64,000 nucleotides of DNA, from NCBI RefSeq assembly GCF_014279975.1, contig NZ_CP047936.1, forward strand, positions 1,178,001 through 1,242,000. The letters are read 5' to 3'. Under the pieces are notes generated by a model. That model was given only the letters and a program-made list of their open reading frames with translations, was not told where the DNA came from and did no database searches. Source of the DNA: Synechococcus sp. BIOS-U3-1. GTDB taxonomy: Bacteria; Cyanobacteriota; Cyanobacteriia; PCC-6307; Cyanobiaceae. Shown one piece after another: positions 32,269 to 59,968 of the stretch; the first letter of the stretch is position 1, and every line of letters starts with the position of its first letter. The position numbers were made by a program, and so were the translations under genes.

Positions 32269-32631
32269 TTGAGGAGTTCTAAAAGCTTTGAAGTGAATAG
32301 CATTCTGACATTGTTGGCTTTGTCTTTCCCCTTGACAGGGGCATTGGCCTCTAAGCCCATTGATTCAAAGATTGATCGTCTCAACAAGGATGGCTATGAA
32401 TATGTTACAACTGCTGGTGATGGAACTATCTATTTTGCAAAAAGAAAGCGTCGAATTAGTGATACAGTTCTCATCGATTTAGTTGAAATTGATTCTCCGA
32501 GCAGTGATGGATTGGTGGAATCAATTCAAGTCTATAATTGCATTGATAAAACCTATAAATTTGATGGAAAATGGAAGCCAATCTTGGCTAAGACAATAGG
32601 AACCAACTTGTTTAACTTTGCCTGTTCTTGA
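32269..32631 (+). CDS. Small exported protein, uncharacterised
   Basis: A 120-residue frame from TTG 32269. A GTG at 32293, preceded at some distance by GAGGAG, would give a more typical signal peptide (MNSILTLLALSFPLTGALAS). The mature part is charged and beta-rich, with two Cys (YNCIDK and the C-terminal NFACS) that could pair. Resembles small periplasmic proteins reported from marine Synechococcus, but no named domain is recognised. Confidence 0.5.
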   Translation: MRSSKSFEVNSILTLLALSFPLTGALASKPIDSKIDRLNKDGYEYVTTAGDGTIYFAKRKRRISDTVLIDLVEIDSPSSDGLVESIQVYNCIDKTYKFDGKWKPILAKTIGTNLFNFACS

Positions 32632-32754
32632 GTAAAGACAGTGTTGAGTGCGACCGATTGTCTCAGGTATAGAACGCTGGTTTTAGGATTACTCAGGGTA
32701 TTGAAGCAATAAACGTTCCCTGCTGCTGCGGGGGCATCAGGTGTCTAATCTGGG

Positions 32755-32979
32755 TCAAACCCCAAATGCACATCCCTTGCTAAATGTACACACGCCTCCC
32801 GAAACTCCTTCCAGTTCCTCTTCACTGAGATTGCTGATCTTATCAGCTGTAAATTCATGACCATGCTCTTTGGCAATACTTACAACATCTTCAGGAGTCT
32901 TTGCTGCTTTTAGTTTCCCCCGAAGATTGGAATCTTTTTTGACTTTGGCGAGGAATGCCTTGAGTTGTTCAAGGGACAT
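32755..32979 (-). CDS. Nif11-leader RiPP precursor, prochlorosin-like (peptide 1)
   Basis: A 74-residue precursor peptide. Residues 1-62 are a Nif11-type leader (MSLEQLKAFLAKVKKD..., ending LSEEELEGVSGG) with the double-glycine cleavage site at G61-G62. The core is only 12 residues, VCTFSKGCAFGV, with C64, T65, S67 and C70. Ser/Thr plus Cys in a short core after such a leader is the hallmark of prochlorosin lanthipeptides: dehydrated Ser/Thr joined to Cys as thioether rings by a LanM synthetase. No lanM gene or exporter is in the window, so modification would act in trans. The upstream region matches that of peptide 2. Confidence 0.85.
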   Translation of the reverse strand: MSLEQLKAFLAKVKKDSNLRGKLKAAKTPEDVVSIAKEHGHEFTADKISNLSEEELEGVSGGVCTFSKGCAFGV

Positions 32980-33066
32980 GGGTATGAGGTCAGTTCAACA
33001 TTTATAGCAATGGTCTGCGGCAGCGTCTTTAACTAATCATTAGTGTGTTCAATCGTGCCAGGTATT
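32980..33066 (-). promoter_or_regulatory. Shared upstream control block, peptide 1
   Basis: On the minus strand, 5' to the start codon, TTGCTATAAA gives an extended -10-like box, its TATAAA occupying 33001-33006. AATACCTGGCA lies at 33056-33066. Both occur at exactly the same distances (22 and 77 nt from the last base of the gene start) in front of peptide 2, although much of the sequence between them differs. No good -35 box is seen, so AATACCTGGCA may be an activator site. Confidence 0.6.
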
Positions 33067-33097
33067 AGAGGCTAAATAGTGTTCTTGTCAGAGCGAC

Positions 33098-33145
33098 ATT
33101 AGAAATAGAAAGCGCCTAAAGTGATAGGAGCTTTCTATTTCTAAT
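33098..33145. repeat. Long perfect hairpin between the two Nif11 peptide genes
   Basis: ATTAGAAATAGAAAGC (33098-33113) and GCTTTCTATTTCTAAT (33130-33145) are perfectly complementary over 16 bp. Pairing resumes inward after one mismatch (CCT with AGG), leaving a loop of about 8 nt. It lies 48 nt beyond the stop of peptide 2 and upstream of the control block of peptide 1. It could end or stabilise the peptide 2 transcript. There is no clean T-tract because T residues lie within the arm itself. Confidence 0.75.
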
Positions 33146-33192
33146 ATGAGATAATAGAGACGGAATTACGAGTTTTGTTTATAGTCGGCATT

Positions 33193-33447
33193 TTATACGA
33201 GTTTTGTGTGGAGGCAAGGCAGTGAGGGTGACCAGCAGTCTGAATCTTGTCCCCCAGCCACGCCTTCCAGTTCTTTTTCAGAAAGCTCTGATTGAGCATT
33301 CTTCAAGTCATCAGCACAAATCATAAATCCTGCCCCTTTTGCAATTGCAAGTATTGCATCGGAATCGGCTGCTGTCTTGAGCTTTTCTTGGACGCTGGGG
33401 TCAGCTTGGATTTTTTCCAGAAAGGCTTTGAGCTGTTCTTCTGACAT
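33193..33447 (-). CDS. Nif11-leader RiPP precursor, prochlorosin-like (peptide 2)
   Basis: An 84-residue precursor. The leader covers residues 1-66 (MSEEQLKAFLEKIQAD..., ending LSEKELEGVAGG) and is very close to published ProcA leaders. The double-glycine site is G65-G66. The 18-residue core is QDSDCWSPSLPCLHTKLV, with C71 and C78 and S69, S73, S75, T81 as ring donors. The core is unrelated to that of peptide 1, while the leaders are alike, the usual pattern for this family. Predicted product: a two-ring lanthipeptide. No synthetase is nearby. Confidence 0.87.
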   Translation of the reverse strand: MSEEQLKAFLEKIQADPSVQEKLKTAADSDAILAIAKGAGFMICADDLKNAQSELSEKELEGVAGGQDSDCWSPSLPCLHTKLV

Positions 33448-33534
33448 CGTTATTAAGCTAGTTCCACTTTTATAGCAACGGAATGATGCAGGTTCTCATG
33501 ACGATAATTATAGGGCTCAAATTTGCCAGGTATT
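33448..33534 (-). promoter_or_regulatory. Shared upstream control block, peptide 2
   Basis: Mirror of the block before peptide 1: TTGCTATAAA (its TATAAA at 33469-33474) and AATACCTGGCA (33524-33534), at the same 22- and 77-nt offsets from the gene start. Between them the two copies keep only scattered identity, so the two elements stand out as constrained. Confidence 0.6.
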
Positions 33535-33684
33535 GGGAATTGACTCTCGGTCTTTTGAGTTTGGCTAAAGAAAACACTAGCATTTAATTGCAAAGAAGGG
33601 ATTGCTGAATCAGGATTTCCAGTTTCGTCTCAGGAAAATTCATACTGTTATCCATTCTTAAGTTGCACAAGTCATCCCTAGTTG

Positions 33685-33891
33685 TCAAAGATTCCCCCGC
33701 ATAGTCCGTTCCCACACCTTCCATCGTGCACCCGCACGGTCAGCTAAGTTGACGTCGGCGAGTGCATCAAGGAACCAGACGCTGTTGTCTCCAATAGACA
33801 GAGGCAGGAACGGACCAATGCCTGCTTGATTGGGTGTGCCAGCACCTTCAAGTGCTTCTTGAAAGCCAAGGGTTGTTTTACCACCACATCC
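33685..33891 (-). pseudogene. Fragment of a large outer-membrane/autotransporter-type protein gene
   Basis: The minus strand reads as 68 protein-like codons (GCGGKTTLGFQEALEGAGTP, ...IGPFLPLSIGDNSVWFLDAL...) bounded by an in-frame TAA upstream and a TGA downstream, with no start codon. The GAGTPNQAGIG and SVWFLDALADVNLAD pieces resemble the start of the barrel-like domain of large surface proteins I remember from marine Synechococcus genomes. Sequence after ADRAG loses that similarity, so the gene is cut at both ends. Remnant of a lost surface gene; family memory only. Confidence 0.45.
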
Positions 33892-34484
33892 TTAAGGTGA
33901 TGCTCATCACATCACCCAGATCCTCTGCAGTGCCGTCCTGTGCCCTCAACGGAGAGTCGGCGAAGCATGGATGAGGCGTCAGTCCGCGCACAATGCCGGG
34001 CTTTGCTTGGTTGCGCTTGAAGATTACACCAGGTACTGAGCAATGACAAAAAGAAACCCCCGCCAAAGGCAGGGGGTCTGAAAACTTTGCGGGAGTGTTT
34101 CCGTGTTTCCACCCCGTGAGTTTTCCTCCTCACTATCAGATCGTATTAACAGTATTTGGATGTGCAACTACTTGTGACCAGTGGATTGAACGGCACAACA
34201 TGGCGCTATACCTGAGGCCGTTGGCTTTTCTCACCGAGAATCCCAACTCCCCAACTTCCTTCGATTTTTGTGCTGCAGGGACGGGAATTGGGATAAGCCT
34301 CTCAAGCAACTTGCACAAACTCCGCAAGGTCCAATCACTGAAATTTGTGCCAATTAGATTATTACCCAGCTGGCATGGCGGTGAACTTTAGATAAAAGAT
34401 GCTGGCAACAATCGCCAACCAACGACTCAAGGCGGTGGAAACGGTAACCTTGAGGTCTCGCAAGCTGGAGATGACTTTCTGATT
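33892..34484. other. Gene-poor stretch with remnants
   Basis: About 590 nt. The minus strand up to about 34,066 may continue remnants of a broken gene, and 34,095-34,391 has open frames on both strands, neither convincing. A strong minus-strand terminator at 34048-34078 has no clear gene before it, leaving room for a small RNA on that strand. Confidence 0.35.
34048..34078 (-). terminator. Strong rho-independent terminator (minus strand)
   Basis: Stem ACCCCC-GCC / GGC-A-GGGGGT (nine pairs, one bulged A) with a 3-nt loop AAA. On the minus strand it is followed by TTCTTTTTG. No reliable minus-strand gene lies within about 800 nt upstream of it (the nearest is DUF3104 copy 2 at 34873, beyond a plus-strand gene). 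Confidence 0.7.
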
Positions 34485-42448: not shown

Positions 42449-44230
42449 TTAAACGTAATCACCTGGAGCTAAAACATTGATTGTCACTTTAGCCACGTCG
42501 TAAGCCTCCCCATCACTTAATACGTAGAAAAATGAATCTTGACCCACAAAGCCAGAATTTGGCCGATACTCAAAGAGGAATTCGCCAATTTTGTTCAATT
42601 TTCCATTGGATGTTAGGCTAAAATCCTTGATAAATGTGTTATCGCCATCAACATCGGTGTCGTCTAAAAAACCAGGTTGATTGTCGACATTGATGATTGT
42701 ATCTGTTTTTACTGAATTACTGATCGTATTTCGATTGTCCCATCCTGTTATATCAATAAAGTCGTCAACGGCTAATGGTGCGTCATTGACTGATGTTATA
42801 TCAAGCGATAAATTAAATTCGTGGGCTTTCTTGCCGTCGTTAATGCGTAGGCTGAATTGTTCTTCTCCGTATGCGTTACTAAATGGTGTATACGTTAATG
42901 ATCTAAATTCTGGTGCATAGCTCAGTGTGCCCAGTCTTGTTGATGTTATTCCTTCAAGTTTAAAATCTGCTATTGGTCCAATTTCATTTTCAATCAAAGA
43001 AACTATATTTACGTTATTGTCCTCGAGTGTATTCATGTTTATCGTTGACGGCCGTTCAAAACTATCAGATGAACTCAAAATCTCAACACCGTTCTTCTCC
43101 CATTTTGTTGTTATATGACTTCCAACGAATAATGGATTATTTTCATTTTTTGGCATTGCAGACCATGGATGTTCATCAAAGTTTAATCCAGCAATGTATT
43201 GCTCACGGCTTTTATAAGGATATGAATTAGGCTTGTAGTAGCCTTTGTCAGCGTGTATATCATTGGCCTTAGCAGTATTAAATAAGGTTATTCCATTATC
43301 AGCTTTTCCTAGACCAGCAACGATTCCATCTGCAAATCCAGTACCCCACGAAACTTCATACTGATTAGTTGCTGCCATCCCAAACCATTGATTTGAAGTA
43401 GATAAAACTTGGTCAGTAACTAATTCTTCAAGAAGTGCACCTGAGTAACATTGCGCCAGGGCAAATGTTGTATTTTTTGATTTATTTATAACATTTCTAA
43501 AAATACTTGCGAACTCATTAGGGTTAATATTTGCACTCTCCCACGACACAAGAGAGCCTAAATTTTGACCTATGGTTTCTTTGGGAGCTACATCTTCATT
43601 AGACGCGTGACTTCCATGATCAAAAGTCCAAACAAAAAGAGAGTCGTCGTTGTCGATAGTTTTTAATCGTGAGTTATTTCCATTAATTGCTTCATCCAGG
43701 CTTGTTTGATTCGCGGGCACTACTTTGGAACCTTTACTTAGCGCATATGAAAAATCAGACTTTGAGAAGAGTTCGTATTTTAAATACTGTTTTCCATTAA
43801 TGGCAATAATATTATAATCAAAGAATACCTGTTTAGACTTTGCGTTGTCTGTCAACTCTTTGATTTTTTTGAGCTTTTTCTCTGTCTCTGAGGCTGTCGC
43901 TGGAGTAAGAAATGATTTTCCTTCATTGTCTTCTTGTGTTGATGCAATAATCTCTTCGAATAAAATTTCTATCTCTGGGTTTTCGGCAAAAAAATCTTTT
44001 AAAATACCCTTTGAATCGATTTGATCGCTTGCATTTGTGTTATAGTTTATTGAATTTCCGGCTTTGTTTAAATTTCCATCTGCATAAGCTATGATGATAT
44101 TTGAGGGGTCGATGCCTCTGTCTAATAACGTTTCGTAAGTTTTTTTTGTTAGACTATAGTATCTTGAATAATTGCTTTGTAGGTTGCTCCCACCGGAAAA
44201 AAGCACTGCGTAATTTTTAGAGTCGCTCAT
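42449..44230 (-). CDS. C13 (legumain-like) cysteine peptidase with C-terminal cadherin-like/Ig-like repeats
   Basis: A 593-residue protein in one AT-rich frame with AAGGAG before the ATG. The N-terminal 380 residues fit a caspase/legumain-type peptidase: AVLFSGGSN, ILFEEI, a catalytic His in VWTFDHGSHAS (H205) and the nucleophile in FALAQCYSGAL (C261). The C-terminal part (about 400-590) has cadherin-like/tandem Ig-like repeats (DVDGDNTFIKDFSLTSNGKL, YRPNSGFVGQDSFFYVLSDG, VNDAPLAVDD), as in surface and secreted proteins. No signal peptide is seen, so a type I-like route is possible. Substrate unknown. Confidence 0.75.
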   Translation of the reverse strand: MSDSKNYAVLFSGGSNLQSNYSRYYSLTKKTYETLLDRGIDPSNIIIAYADGNLNKAGNSINYNTNASDQIDSKGILKDFFAENPEIEILFEEIIASTQEDNEGKSFLTPATASETEKKLKKIKELTDNAKSKQVFFDYNIIAINGKQYLKYELFSKSDFSYALSKGSKVVPANQTSLDEAINGNNSRLKTIDNDDSLFVWTFDHGSHASNEDVAPKETIGQNLGSLVSWESANINPNEFASIFRNVINKSKNTTFALAQCYSGALLEELVTDQVLSTSNQWFGMAATNQYEVSWGTGFADGIVAGLGKADNGITLFNTAKANDIHADKGYYKPNSYPYKSREQYIAGLNFDEHPWSAMPKNENNPLFVGSHITTKWEKNGVEILSSSDSFERPSTINMNTLEDNNVNIVSLIENEIGPIADFKLEGITSTRLGTLSYAPEFRSLTYTPFSNAYGEEQFSLRINDGKKAHEFNLSLDITSVNDAPLAVDDFIDITGWDNRNTISNSVKTDTIINVDNQPGFLDDTDVDGDNTFIKDFSLTSNGKLNKIGEFLFEYRPNSGFVGQDSFFYVLSDGEAYDVAKVTINVLAPGDYV

Positions 44231-59424: not shown

Positions 59425-59428
59425 TAGT

Positions 59429-59605
59429 GGACTGCCTGGTTGGTGACAGCCTTTCTCTAGTGCTCTGATCTGACTCTCTTTCGACTTGGGGTGACTGTCG
59501 TGAAGGTGCAGTAAACCGGCCTCGTAGCCGGAAACGAATCCTCACTTTGTCGCCCCTTCTGGTAACTCCAGGTCGAAGCCTGAAGGCGTCACGGTCAAGT
59601 GGTCC
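59429..59605 (+). ncRNA. ssrS: 6S RNA (RNA polymerase inhibitor)
   Basis: Directly after purK lies a long imperfect rod, about 177 nt, the size of 6S RNA. The outer stem pairs GGACT (59429) with GGTCC (59601-59605), then GTGAC-A-GCC with GGC-GTCAC. An internal open bubble follows. The inner arm pairs GGGGTGAC with GTCGCCCC, GTGAAGG with CCTCAC, and CCGGC with GCCGG around a small loop. This bubble-in-rod shape mimics an open promoter and binds the RNA polymerase holoenzyme. In cyanobacteria 6S RNA is known to sit next to purK. I could not test the fold numerically; exact ends are approximate. Confidence 0.75.
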
Positions 59606-59968
59606 ACCTAATGCAGCAACAGGGTGCTCAGCGAGACAACGCTTGCGAAAACTCTTCAAAAAACCTCATCATCAATCGCTGAGAAGATCTTTGATTCTTT
59701 GATTGGCCACCTCAGGATGACTAATCACACGCAGGGAGTGGTTTGGAGGCTATTCCTGCTTCGATTTGCTCCAAATCACAGGCTCATAGAGGCTTATTGT
59801 TGATATTGTCCTAGTACTCATGTAGAGCGGCTGAATTGTAATCGTTGAAGCGTAGTTATTTATTTCCAATAGTCAGTAGTTGGATTCGCAATAACACAGC
59901 AAAAGACATCGCCATGTAGACATAATGTTTAAGCGATTGACGCCTGCCAGGGCTTTCTAAGGAATAAC
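59606..59968. other. Gene-free stretch
   Basis: About 360 nt after the 6S RNA with AT-rich sequence. The antisense reading frame over purK and the 6S region is not a gene. No tRNA recognised. Confidence 0.4.

What the first reader, a model, noticed from the sequence alone, without database searches (positions are those of the whole stretch)
32755..33534. Two orphan prochlorosin-like precursors with a duplicated control block at identical spacing
Two Nif11-leader peptides with double-glycine sites have nearly identical leaders but unrelated cores (VCTFSKGCAFGV and an 18-residue core), each with two Cys and several Ser/Thr. Upstream of both, TTGCTATAAA and AATACCTGGCA sit at the same 22- and 77-nt offsets from the gene start, while much of the sequence between has diverged. 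This suggests duplication followed by core diversification, under one regulator. No LanM, protease or exporter lies in the window, so any maturation is in trans.
Basis: partly seen in the sequence, partly recalled or inferred. Interest (0 to 1): 0.85.

Follow-up and report, generated by a model that had tools for sequence, protein, structure and literature searches.

The report
Prochlorosin gene cassettes sharing one joint
Two genes for small prochlorosin-type peptides in a marine cyanobacterium sit in a row of interchangeable gene cassettes that share the same joining sequence and a similar promoter; the peptides are of a known kind, but the joint gives a testable idea of how such peptide families are shuffled and multiplied.

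Summary
In detail: two Nif11/double-glycine precursors (32755-32979 and 33193-33447, minus strand) carry AATACCTGGCA at -87..-77 and TTGCTATAAA at -31..-22 from each ATG. A LanM gene with an ABC exporter gene beside it and a C39 peptidase domain nearby lies about 348 kb away, so maturation in trans is plausible. But the leaders are only 52% identical (32/62) and fall in different leader clades, so the pair is not a recent duplicate. TTGCTATAAA is the extended -10 box of a promoter shared by many procA genes. AATACCTGGCA is the right end of a dispersed joint, E: an upstream-gene terminator plus a ~50-nt tag. In this genome 7 of 16 exact copies precede a Nif11 gene; 9 follow procA, GG-peptide or porin-like genes and lead elsewhere. 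Neighbouring E copies point the same way (113 of 113 distinct pairs), conservation stops at GGCAC, and genes with 94-99% identical left flanks continue into unrelated genes right of E. In the window, E flanks both precursors on both sides. Best reading: prochlorosin cassettes in a unidirectional array, exchanged by recombination at E. An association of lanthipeptide genes with TnpA-REP transposases is already in a preprint (title seen only).

The parts
33193..33447 (-). procA2: Nif11-leader precursor, 84 aa, GG site, core QDSDCWSPSLPCLHTKLV
   Evidence: closest leaders of the AADSDAVLAIAKEAGF type
32755..32979 (-). procA1: Nif11-leader precursor, 74 aa, GG site, core VCTFSKGCAFGV
   Evidence: closest leaders of the KSPEDVVGIAKEHGHEF type
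33523..33581 (-). E joint upstream of procA2 (contains AATACCTGGCA 33524-33534); diverged, a decayed porin-like gene lies to its left
33052..33122 (-). E joint between procA2 and procA1 (contains AATACCTGGCA 33056-33066), with a terminator-like hairpin on its left (by eye)
32664..32731 (-). E joint downstream of procA1, diverged (TTTATTGCTTCAAT...CTATACCTGAGAC)
   Evidence: E 1.3e-6 with the 77-nt profile; not significant with the 54-nt profile, E 3.7
33001..33029 (-). procA1 promoter: -35-like AAGACG, 17-nt spacer, extended -10 TTGCTATAAA (33001-33010)
33469..33497 (-). procA2 promoter: extended -10 TTGCTATAAA (33469-33478); the -35 position reads GAGAAC, 17-nt spacer
33730..33943 (-). decayed porin-like gene fragment left of the first E; longer homologues precede E in other genera
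   Evidence: tblastn 80% over 50 aa, E 1.6e-23, and a second piece in another frame

Best explanation
The locus is a two-gene array of prochlorosin cassettes. Each cassette is promoter, precursor gene, terminator, and then a joint E whose tag ends in AATACCTGGCAC. Shown: the gene pair, the promoter block, E on both sides of each gene, E at many places in this and related genomes, its single orientation and sharp right edge, and neighbours that differ to the right of E while the left flank is 94-99% identical. Inferred: cassettes are gained, lost and exchanged by recombination between E copies as direct repeats (homologous recombination most likely, perhaps started by a TnpA-REP/RAYT single-strand transposase). 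Each precursor is transcribed from its own extended -10 promoter, modified by the distant LanM at Ser/Thr/Cys of the core, cut after GG and exported.
For: Family. LanM 702 bits to TIGR03897 with DUF4135 and LANC_like, ABC ORF directly before it, and a C39 domain at 854670. Promoter: in 94 procA genes with E at the standard offset, TTGCTAT-type -10 in most, AAGACA or AAGACG at -50 in 63 of 94, 17-nt spacer. E-to-ATG offset is 63 nt in 94 of 129 cases. Sharp edge of E over 111 copies with non-procA right flanks in 39 clusters. Orientation: 113 distinct neighbouring pairs within 800 nt the same, 0 opposite. Terminator-like hairpin left of E in 163 of 227 copies against 12 and 41 of 227 in two control stretches. 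Swap at E: G000:2005412 and a G015 copy are 99.3% identical over 405 nt on the left and identical through the tag, then 18-44% to the right; two GG-peptide genes of this genome, 94% identical over 404 nt, continue into a TPR gene or a procA. Locus: 12 of 15 relatives fetched show neither Nif11 ORFs nor E beside the PAP anchor gene (9 of the 12 with an anchor on both sides), while G016 has 10 Nif11 ORFs and 5 E there.
Against: No recombination event was observed directly; identical left flanks with different right flanks can also arise from a deletion or insertion that happens to end in a conserved promoter region. Of 36 procA-type ORFs in the fetched loci of this genome, 21 have no E within 200 nt upstream and 16 none within 250 nt downstream; a second type carries a terminator but no E just upstream. 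One E lies on the strand opposite a nearby Nif11 ORF. Two of the 13 near copies not before a Nif11 gene (1476077, 2013167) lack the terminator. Most E copies were found by similarity to E, so the samples behind favour good copies. The window copies of E are among the weaker ones, and the third is found only with the longer profile. G024 and G021 have Nif11 ORFs in the same interval without a detected E. Modification and export are inferred, not shown.
Confidence: 0.7

Rival explanations
1. E plus the promoter block is a regulatory region: AATACCTGGCACGATTGAGCGCAGTAAnTATTA is an activator site some 40-70 nt upstream of the start of transcription, and procA genes form one regulon.
For: Distance to ATG is 63 nt in 94 of 129 cases. 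Constraint: mean pairwise identity 0.82 for -87..-64 against 0.56 just left of it and 0.52 at third codon positions, over sampled pairs of 77 of the 94 genes. AATAC...GTATT could form an inverted repeat.
Against: 9 of 16 exact copies in the genome are not directly in front of a Nif11 gene; conservation in other contexts ends at GGCAC, before the TATTA half; E abuts transposase genes in antisense; GTATT is lost before both window genes. The 0.82 is inflated because E was used to pick the set.
Confidence: 0.3
2. E is a REP-like element spread by TnpA-REP (RAYT) transposases; procA genes travel because they are caught between REP copies.
For: 19 of 30 Y1 transposase loci, picked by Pfam hit alone (in genomes chosen mostly because they carry E), have E at 528-580 nt beyond the catalytic domain, always convergent, and several different transposase 3' flanks stop at GTGCCAGGTATT or a close variant. 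[quoted passage not shown]
Against: No Y1 transposase in this genome; no inverted E pairs, 0 of 113; the E tag has no significant fold (z -0.10; other strand z -1.59); no constant GTAG/GGAG at the tag (by eye); 10 of 30 transposase loci show no E on that side and one has it at 672 nt.
Confidence: 0.3
3. E is an integron-type attC site and the genes are integron cassettes.
For: Cassette layout: one gene, one shared 3' module, one direction.
Against: No integron integrase over cut-off in 19 of 19 genomes; weak matches below it in 9 of 19, as also in the 14 control genomes. The E tag lacks the long palindrome of attC.
Confidence: 0.03
4. Simple shared ancestry: old tandem duplication of a unit that happened to include the intergenic region, with no function for E.
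For: Arrays of procA with E between them.
Against: E joins unrelated families; listed copies in other genera are 89-97% identical to the consensus over 27-43 nt, while a flanking protein is only 51-67% identical in 21 of 27 other genomes of this genus; neighbours switch at E.
Confidence: 0.1

Closest known systems
Prochlorosins / synechococsins (ProcA/SyncA with ProcM/SyncM)
   Same: Nif11-type leader, EELEGV-GG site, variable Cys/Ser/Thr core, many scattered precursor genes and a LanM with a CCG motif; [quoted passage not shown]
   Different: Nothing of substance in the peptides. The joint and promoter block are not mentioned in the passages seen; in that text 'promoter' occurs 0 times and 'upstream' and 'intergenic' 0 times.
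TnpA-REP (RAYT) / REP systems
   Same: Short dispersed intergenic repeat found in register beside Y1 transposase genes in relatives; association with lanthipeptide genes already claimed in a preprint (title seen in a reference list only).
   Different: No inverted pairs of E were found, the tag is not palindromic, and E is abundant in this genome, where no Y1 transposase was found.
Integron gene cassettes
   Same: Unidirectional one-gene cassettes with a common 3' module and neighbours exchanged at it.
   Different: No integron integrase over cut-off, no attC fold; procA cassettes have their own promoter and terminator.

Membership tests
Prochlorosin precursor (ProcA) | Nif11-type leader of TIGR03798 | tested here: met
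   89 and 88 bits against cut-off 32.3
Prochlorosin precursor (ProcA) | Double-Gly cleavage site followed by a core with Cys and Ser/Thr | tested here: met
   SGG|VCTFSKGCAFGV and AGG|QDSDCWSPSLPCLHTKLV
Prochlorosin precursor (ProcA) | ProcM-like LanM in the genome | tested here: met
   one LANC_like hit in G000; 1129-aa ORF, TIGR03897 702 bits, DUF4135 + LANC_like; 'LCCG' in its sequence, the motif named for ProcM-like enzymes in PMC10783134
Prochlorosin precursor (ProcA) | Core dehydrated and cyclised by that LanM | not testable with these tools
   needs co-expression and mass spectrometry
TnpA-REP / REP element (for E) | Cognate Y1 transposase in the same genome | tested here: not met
   0 PF01797 hits in G000; 35 hits in 11 of 20 genomes searched
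TnpA-REP / REP element (for E) | Repeat flanks transposase genes in fixed register | tested here: met
   19 of 30 loci in relatives at 528-580 nt, convergent
TnpA-REP / REP element (for E) | Palindromic hairpin next to a GTAG/GGAG tetranucleotide (recalled definition) | tested here: inconclusive
   tag does not fold (z -0.10; other strand -1.59); the only strong hairpin is the terminator (z -4.65); tetranucleotide not constant by eye
TnpA-REP / REP element (for E) | Occurrence as inverted pairs (REPIN, recalled definition) | tested here: not met
   0 opposite of 113 distinct neighbouring pairs within 800 nt, 0 of 150 within 2000 nt
Integron cassette (for E) | Integron integrase in the genome | tested here: not met
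   TIGR02249: 0 of 19 genomes over cut-off; G000 has no match at E <= 0.001
Integron cassette (for E) | attC palindrome (recalled definition) | tested here: not met

The most novel reading that the evidence does not exclude
E is a dedicated joint of an integrase-free cassette system in marine picocyanobacteria: secreted-peptide and surface-protein genes of unrelated families (prochlorosins, non-Nif11 GG peptides, TPR proteins, porin-like proteins) carry the same terminator-plus-tag at their 3' end and are exchanged at the tag, possibly nicked by a TnpA-REP transposase, so that a cell can rewrite its set of exported peptides without touching the modifying enzyme.
Probability: 0.27. Interest if true: 0.78.

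Novelty: new member of a known kind. Interest (0 to 1): 0.5.

Why it matters
The peptides themselves are ordinary prochlorosins. What the locus offers is a concrete, searchable joint that marks where many prochlorosin cassettes begin and end. That makes the open question of how one cell comes to encode dozens of unrelated cyclic peptides directly testable: E predicts the breakpoints of gain and loss, and it links prochlorosins with other gene families, some of them probably exported, that use the same joint.

Tried and rejected
A single shared operator as the full explanation: rejected because 9 of 16 exact motif copies in the genome are not directly before a Nif11 gene. Tandem duplication of one precursor into two: rejected by leader identity and tree (the tree has only 66 columns for 181 rows, many open forks and an unsettled bootstrap, but starred branches keep the two apart). 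Virus-borne E: an 18-mer of E hit 5 viral contigs; in L161, L162 and L165 the motif lies inside a long ORF, and L163 and L164 share one phage-like sequence; none shows the terminator or the rest of the tag, so all were taken as chance. Integron: no integrase over cut-off. A coding origin of E (frame '...LKYLARLSA' at three TPR loci) was considered and dropped, because in the other copies shown this frame belongs to no ORF that I recognised (judged by eye). Rfam at gathering threshold: no family covers E in nine own loci, the window or twelve relative loci. The Cyano-1 (Yfr2) sRNA beside two procA arrays in this genome was followed to 12 relative loci, with no hit. The 2017 PNAS paper on prochlorosin evolution (recalled) and the TnpA-REP preprint are not held, so what they say about flanking sequences was not checked. 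Paper searches made; none listed a paper that by its title or abstract treats this joint, and the text search for its letters returned two unrelated cancer papers.

Limits of the counts: loci for searches were fetched because they hold Nif11 genes, E or transposases, so they are not random. In one search one ambiguous copy was left out of the two groups. In one search, 30 of the 35 transposase hits were examined (those with loci), and one of the 30 (L183) ends at the contig edge with no 3' flank. One search scored at most two candidates per genome, at most 14. In one search the far anchor gene was not found for three of the 12 'empty' relatives (G020, G012, G023). In one search the strong right-hand matches mostly reflect conserved procA leaders, so only left-matched swaps are used as evidence. 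One search printed 114 same-orientation pairs; one was a repeat, and recounts 113.

Full report
Observation. The two ORFs are on the minus strand at 32755-32979 (74 aa) and 33193-33447 (84 aa). Both are Nif11-like RiPP precursors (TIGR03798, 89 and 88 bits; PF07862) with GG sites and cores VCTFSKGCAFGV and QDSDCWSPSLPCLHTKLV, each with two Cys and Ser/Thr. AATACCTGGCA lies at -87..-77 and TTGCTATAAA at -31..-22 before each start.

Genome context. The window is part of a 2.71-Mb single-contig genome of a marine picocyanobacterial type (the best-matching named records holding the flanking PAP gene are Synechococcus; records very near this genome may be left out there). It holds 47 Nif11 hits over cut-off out of 51 listed. 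One LanM was found: an 1129-aa ORF at 858979-862368 with DUF4135 and LANC_like domains, 702 bits to TIGR03897, and the letters LCCG; PMC10783134 (passages seen) calls a CCG motif characteristic of ProcM-like enzymes. A 630-aa ABC ORF, closest to the NHLP export family but below that model's cut-off, lies directly before it, and a C39 peptidase domain lies at 854670 (a second one at 2031270). The window pair is about 348 kb from this cluster, so maturation in trans is the sensible reading, as for other scattered procA genes.

Not a recent duplicate pair. The leaders align with 32 of 62 identities; among 180 other leaders of this and related genomes procA2 ranks 144th as neighbour of procA1, and the tree puts them in different starred sets. 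The most similar leader of each, among those sampled, lies in another genome.

What the two conserved motifs are. Aligning 94 procA genes with E at the standard offset (12 of them from this genome) shows one promoter: AAGACA or AAGACG at -50 in 63, a 17-nt spacer and an extended -10, TTGCTATAAC (32), TTGCTATGAC (27) or TTGCTATAAA as in the window (7). procA1 has AAGACG at -50; procA2 has GAGAAC, a poor -35. AATACCTGGCA is different. Its 16 exact copies in the genome are 7 before Nif11 genes and 9 elsewhere; of 24 near copies of the longer 24-mer (reversed control 0), 11 precede a Nif11 start and 13 do not (positions compared). Those 13 lead into TPR, non-Nif11 GG-peptide or unassigned sequence; 11 of the 13 have the terminator-like stretch to their left, 1476077 and 2013167 do not.

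Coverage in this genome. Of 36 procA-type ORFs in the fetched loci, 15 have E within 200 nt upstream and 20 have E within 250 nt downstream; so E is common but not universal. Of 35 E copies there, 7 lie between two Nif11 ORFs, 13 only after one, 8 only before one and 7 beside neither; in the E-rich loci of G015, G016 and G024 the numbers are 99, 28, 15 and 9 of 151.

The joint E. From 232 distinct copies, 120 have the procA promoter block to the right and 111 have something else, in 39 clusters, with one ambiguous; weighted by cluster, conservation in the 111 runs from the terminator arm through TTTTTATTTCTTCAAT and AAATCAGCCTYCAATACCTGGCAC, with a weak ATT after it, and then falls to nothing. 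A terminator-like hairpin stands left of 163 of 227 copies, against 12 and 41 of 227 in two control stretches. Neighbouring copies within 800 nt point the same way in 113 of 113 distinct pairs, and in 150 of 150 within 2000 nt. In a table of 225 copies the gene to the left is Nif11 (185), porin-like (14), GG-peptide (5), TPR (3), antisense Nif11 (1) or other (17); to the right Nif11 (145), antisense Y1 transposase (19), TPR (5), GG-peptide (4), porin-like (2) or other (50).

Switching at E. Between this genome and a related one (G015), a procA gene and its downstream E are 99.3% identical over 405 nt of left flank and identical through AATACCTGGCACGATTGAGCGCAGTAA; to the right the sequences are unrelated (44% then 18% without gaps). 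Within this genome, two GG-peptide genes 94% identical over 404 nt continue into a TPR gene in one place and a procA in the other. Overall 45 of 85 strong left-flank pairs have unrelated right flanks and 13 match strongly on both sides. In these pairs within the genus the switch lies some 12-15 nt to the right of GGCAC, at the end of GATTGAGCGCAGT, whereas over all contexts conservation ends at GGCAC.

Distribution. E with the procA promoter was sought in 400 genomes of the family: 25 match, 16 of 31 in this genus and 9 of 369 in other genera, the latter, in the matches listed, only over the first ~43 nt of the query, that is E without the promoter block. One of these (G123) has the length of Prochlorococcus MIT9313 (recalled). 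G008 and G012, 99% complete and without a LANC_like hit, still carry E.

Transposase link. Of 30 Y1 (RAYT-type) transposase loci in relatives, picked by Pfam hit alone in genomes that mostly carry E, 19 have E at 528-580 nt past the domain, convergent; one has it at 672 nt and 10 lack it there, one of these for want of flank. In the 19 loci printed, several different transposase 3' flanks stop at GTGCCAGGTATT or a close variant. No such gene was found in this genome. A preprint by Laurenceau and others on lanthipeptide genes and TnpA-REP transposases is cited in PMC10783134 (title seen in the reference list; text not held), so the association as such is not new.

The window array. A profile built without the window's own copies finds three E copies, all on the minus strand: 33524-33581, 33052-33122 and 32664-32731. 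They bracket both genes: E-procA2-E-procA1-E. Left of the first lies a decayed porin-like gene, whose longer relatives stand left of E in other genera. Of 15 relatives fetched at the PAP anchor gene, 12 show neither Nif11 ORFs nor E; in 9 of these an anchor was found on both sides. G024 and G021 have two Nif11 ORFs each in the interval without a detected E there, and G016 has 10 Nif11 ORFs and 5 E.

Mechanism. Best supported: promoter-gene-terminator-E cassettes, exchanged at E. Whether by RecA alone or helped by a single-strand transposase is open. Regulation through the sequence between E and the promoter remains possible and is a separate question. Modification and export of the two peptides are inferred from family membership.

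Noticed in passing
window 34077-34139 (-): Cyano-1 (Yfr2-type) sRNA gene about 630 nt upstream of procA2; a second one lies at genome 2007507-2007570 next to another procA array. None in 12 relative loci.
   Followed up: partly
window 59426-59609 (+): 6S RNA gene (Rfam RF00013, 101 bits).
   Followed up: no
window 33730-33943 (-): Decayed porin-like gene fragment in two frames; longer relatives precede E in other genera.
   Followed up: partly
window 32269-32631 (+): 120-aa ORF with a signal-peptide-like start (by eye), convergent with the array and ending next to its last E copy; no family search made.
   Followed up: no
L054 8574-8660 (genome 2265073): E plus a truncated procA promoter block that turns into an inverted TCATAGCAACGG, as if an inversion cut the block.
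   Followed up: no
L034, L040, L042, L051: Non-Nif11 double-glycine peptides starting M(T/S)..NTDYNNTELLDQEL with their own repeated 5' block (TTCACCAGAAG...) and E nearby; a second small-peptide family in the same arrays.
   Followed up: partly
window 42449-44230 (-): 593-aa protein that by eye looks legumain-like at its start, with repeat-like C-terminal part; no search made.
   Followed up: no
L034 9360-9491 (genome 814859-814990): procA pseudogene with two in-frame stops, still followed by an E copy.
   Followed up: no
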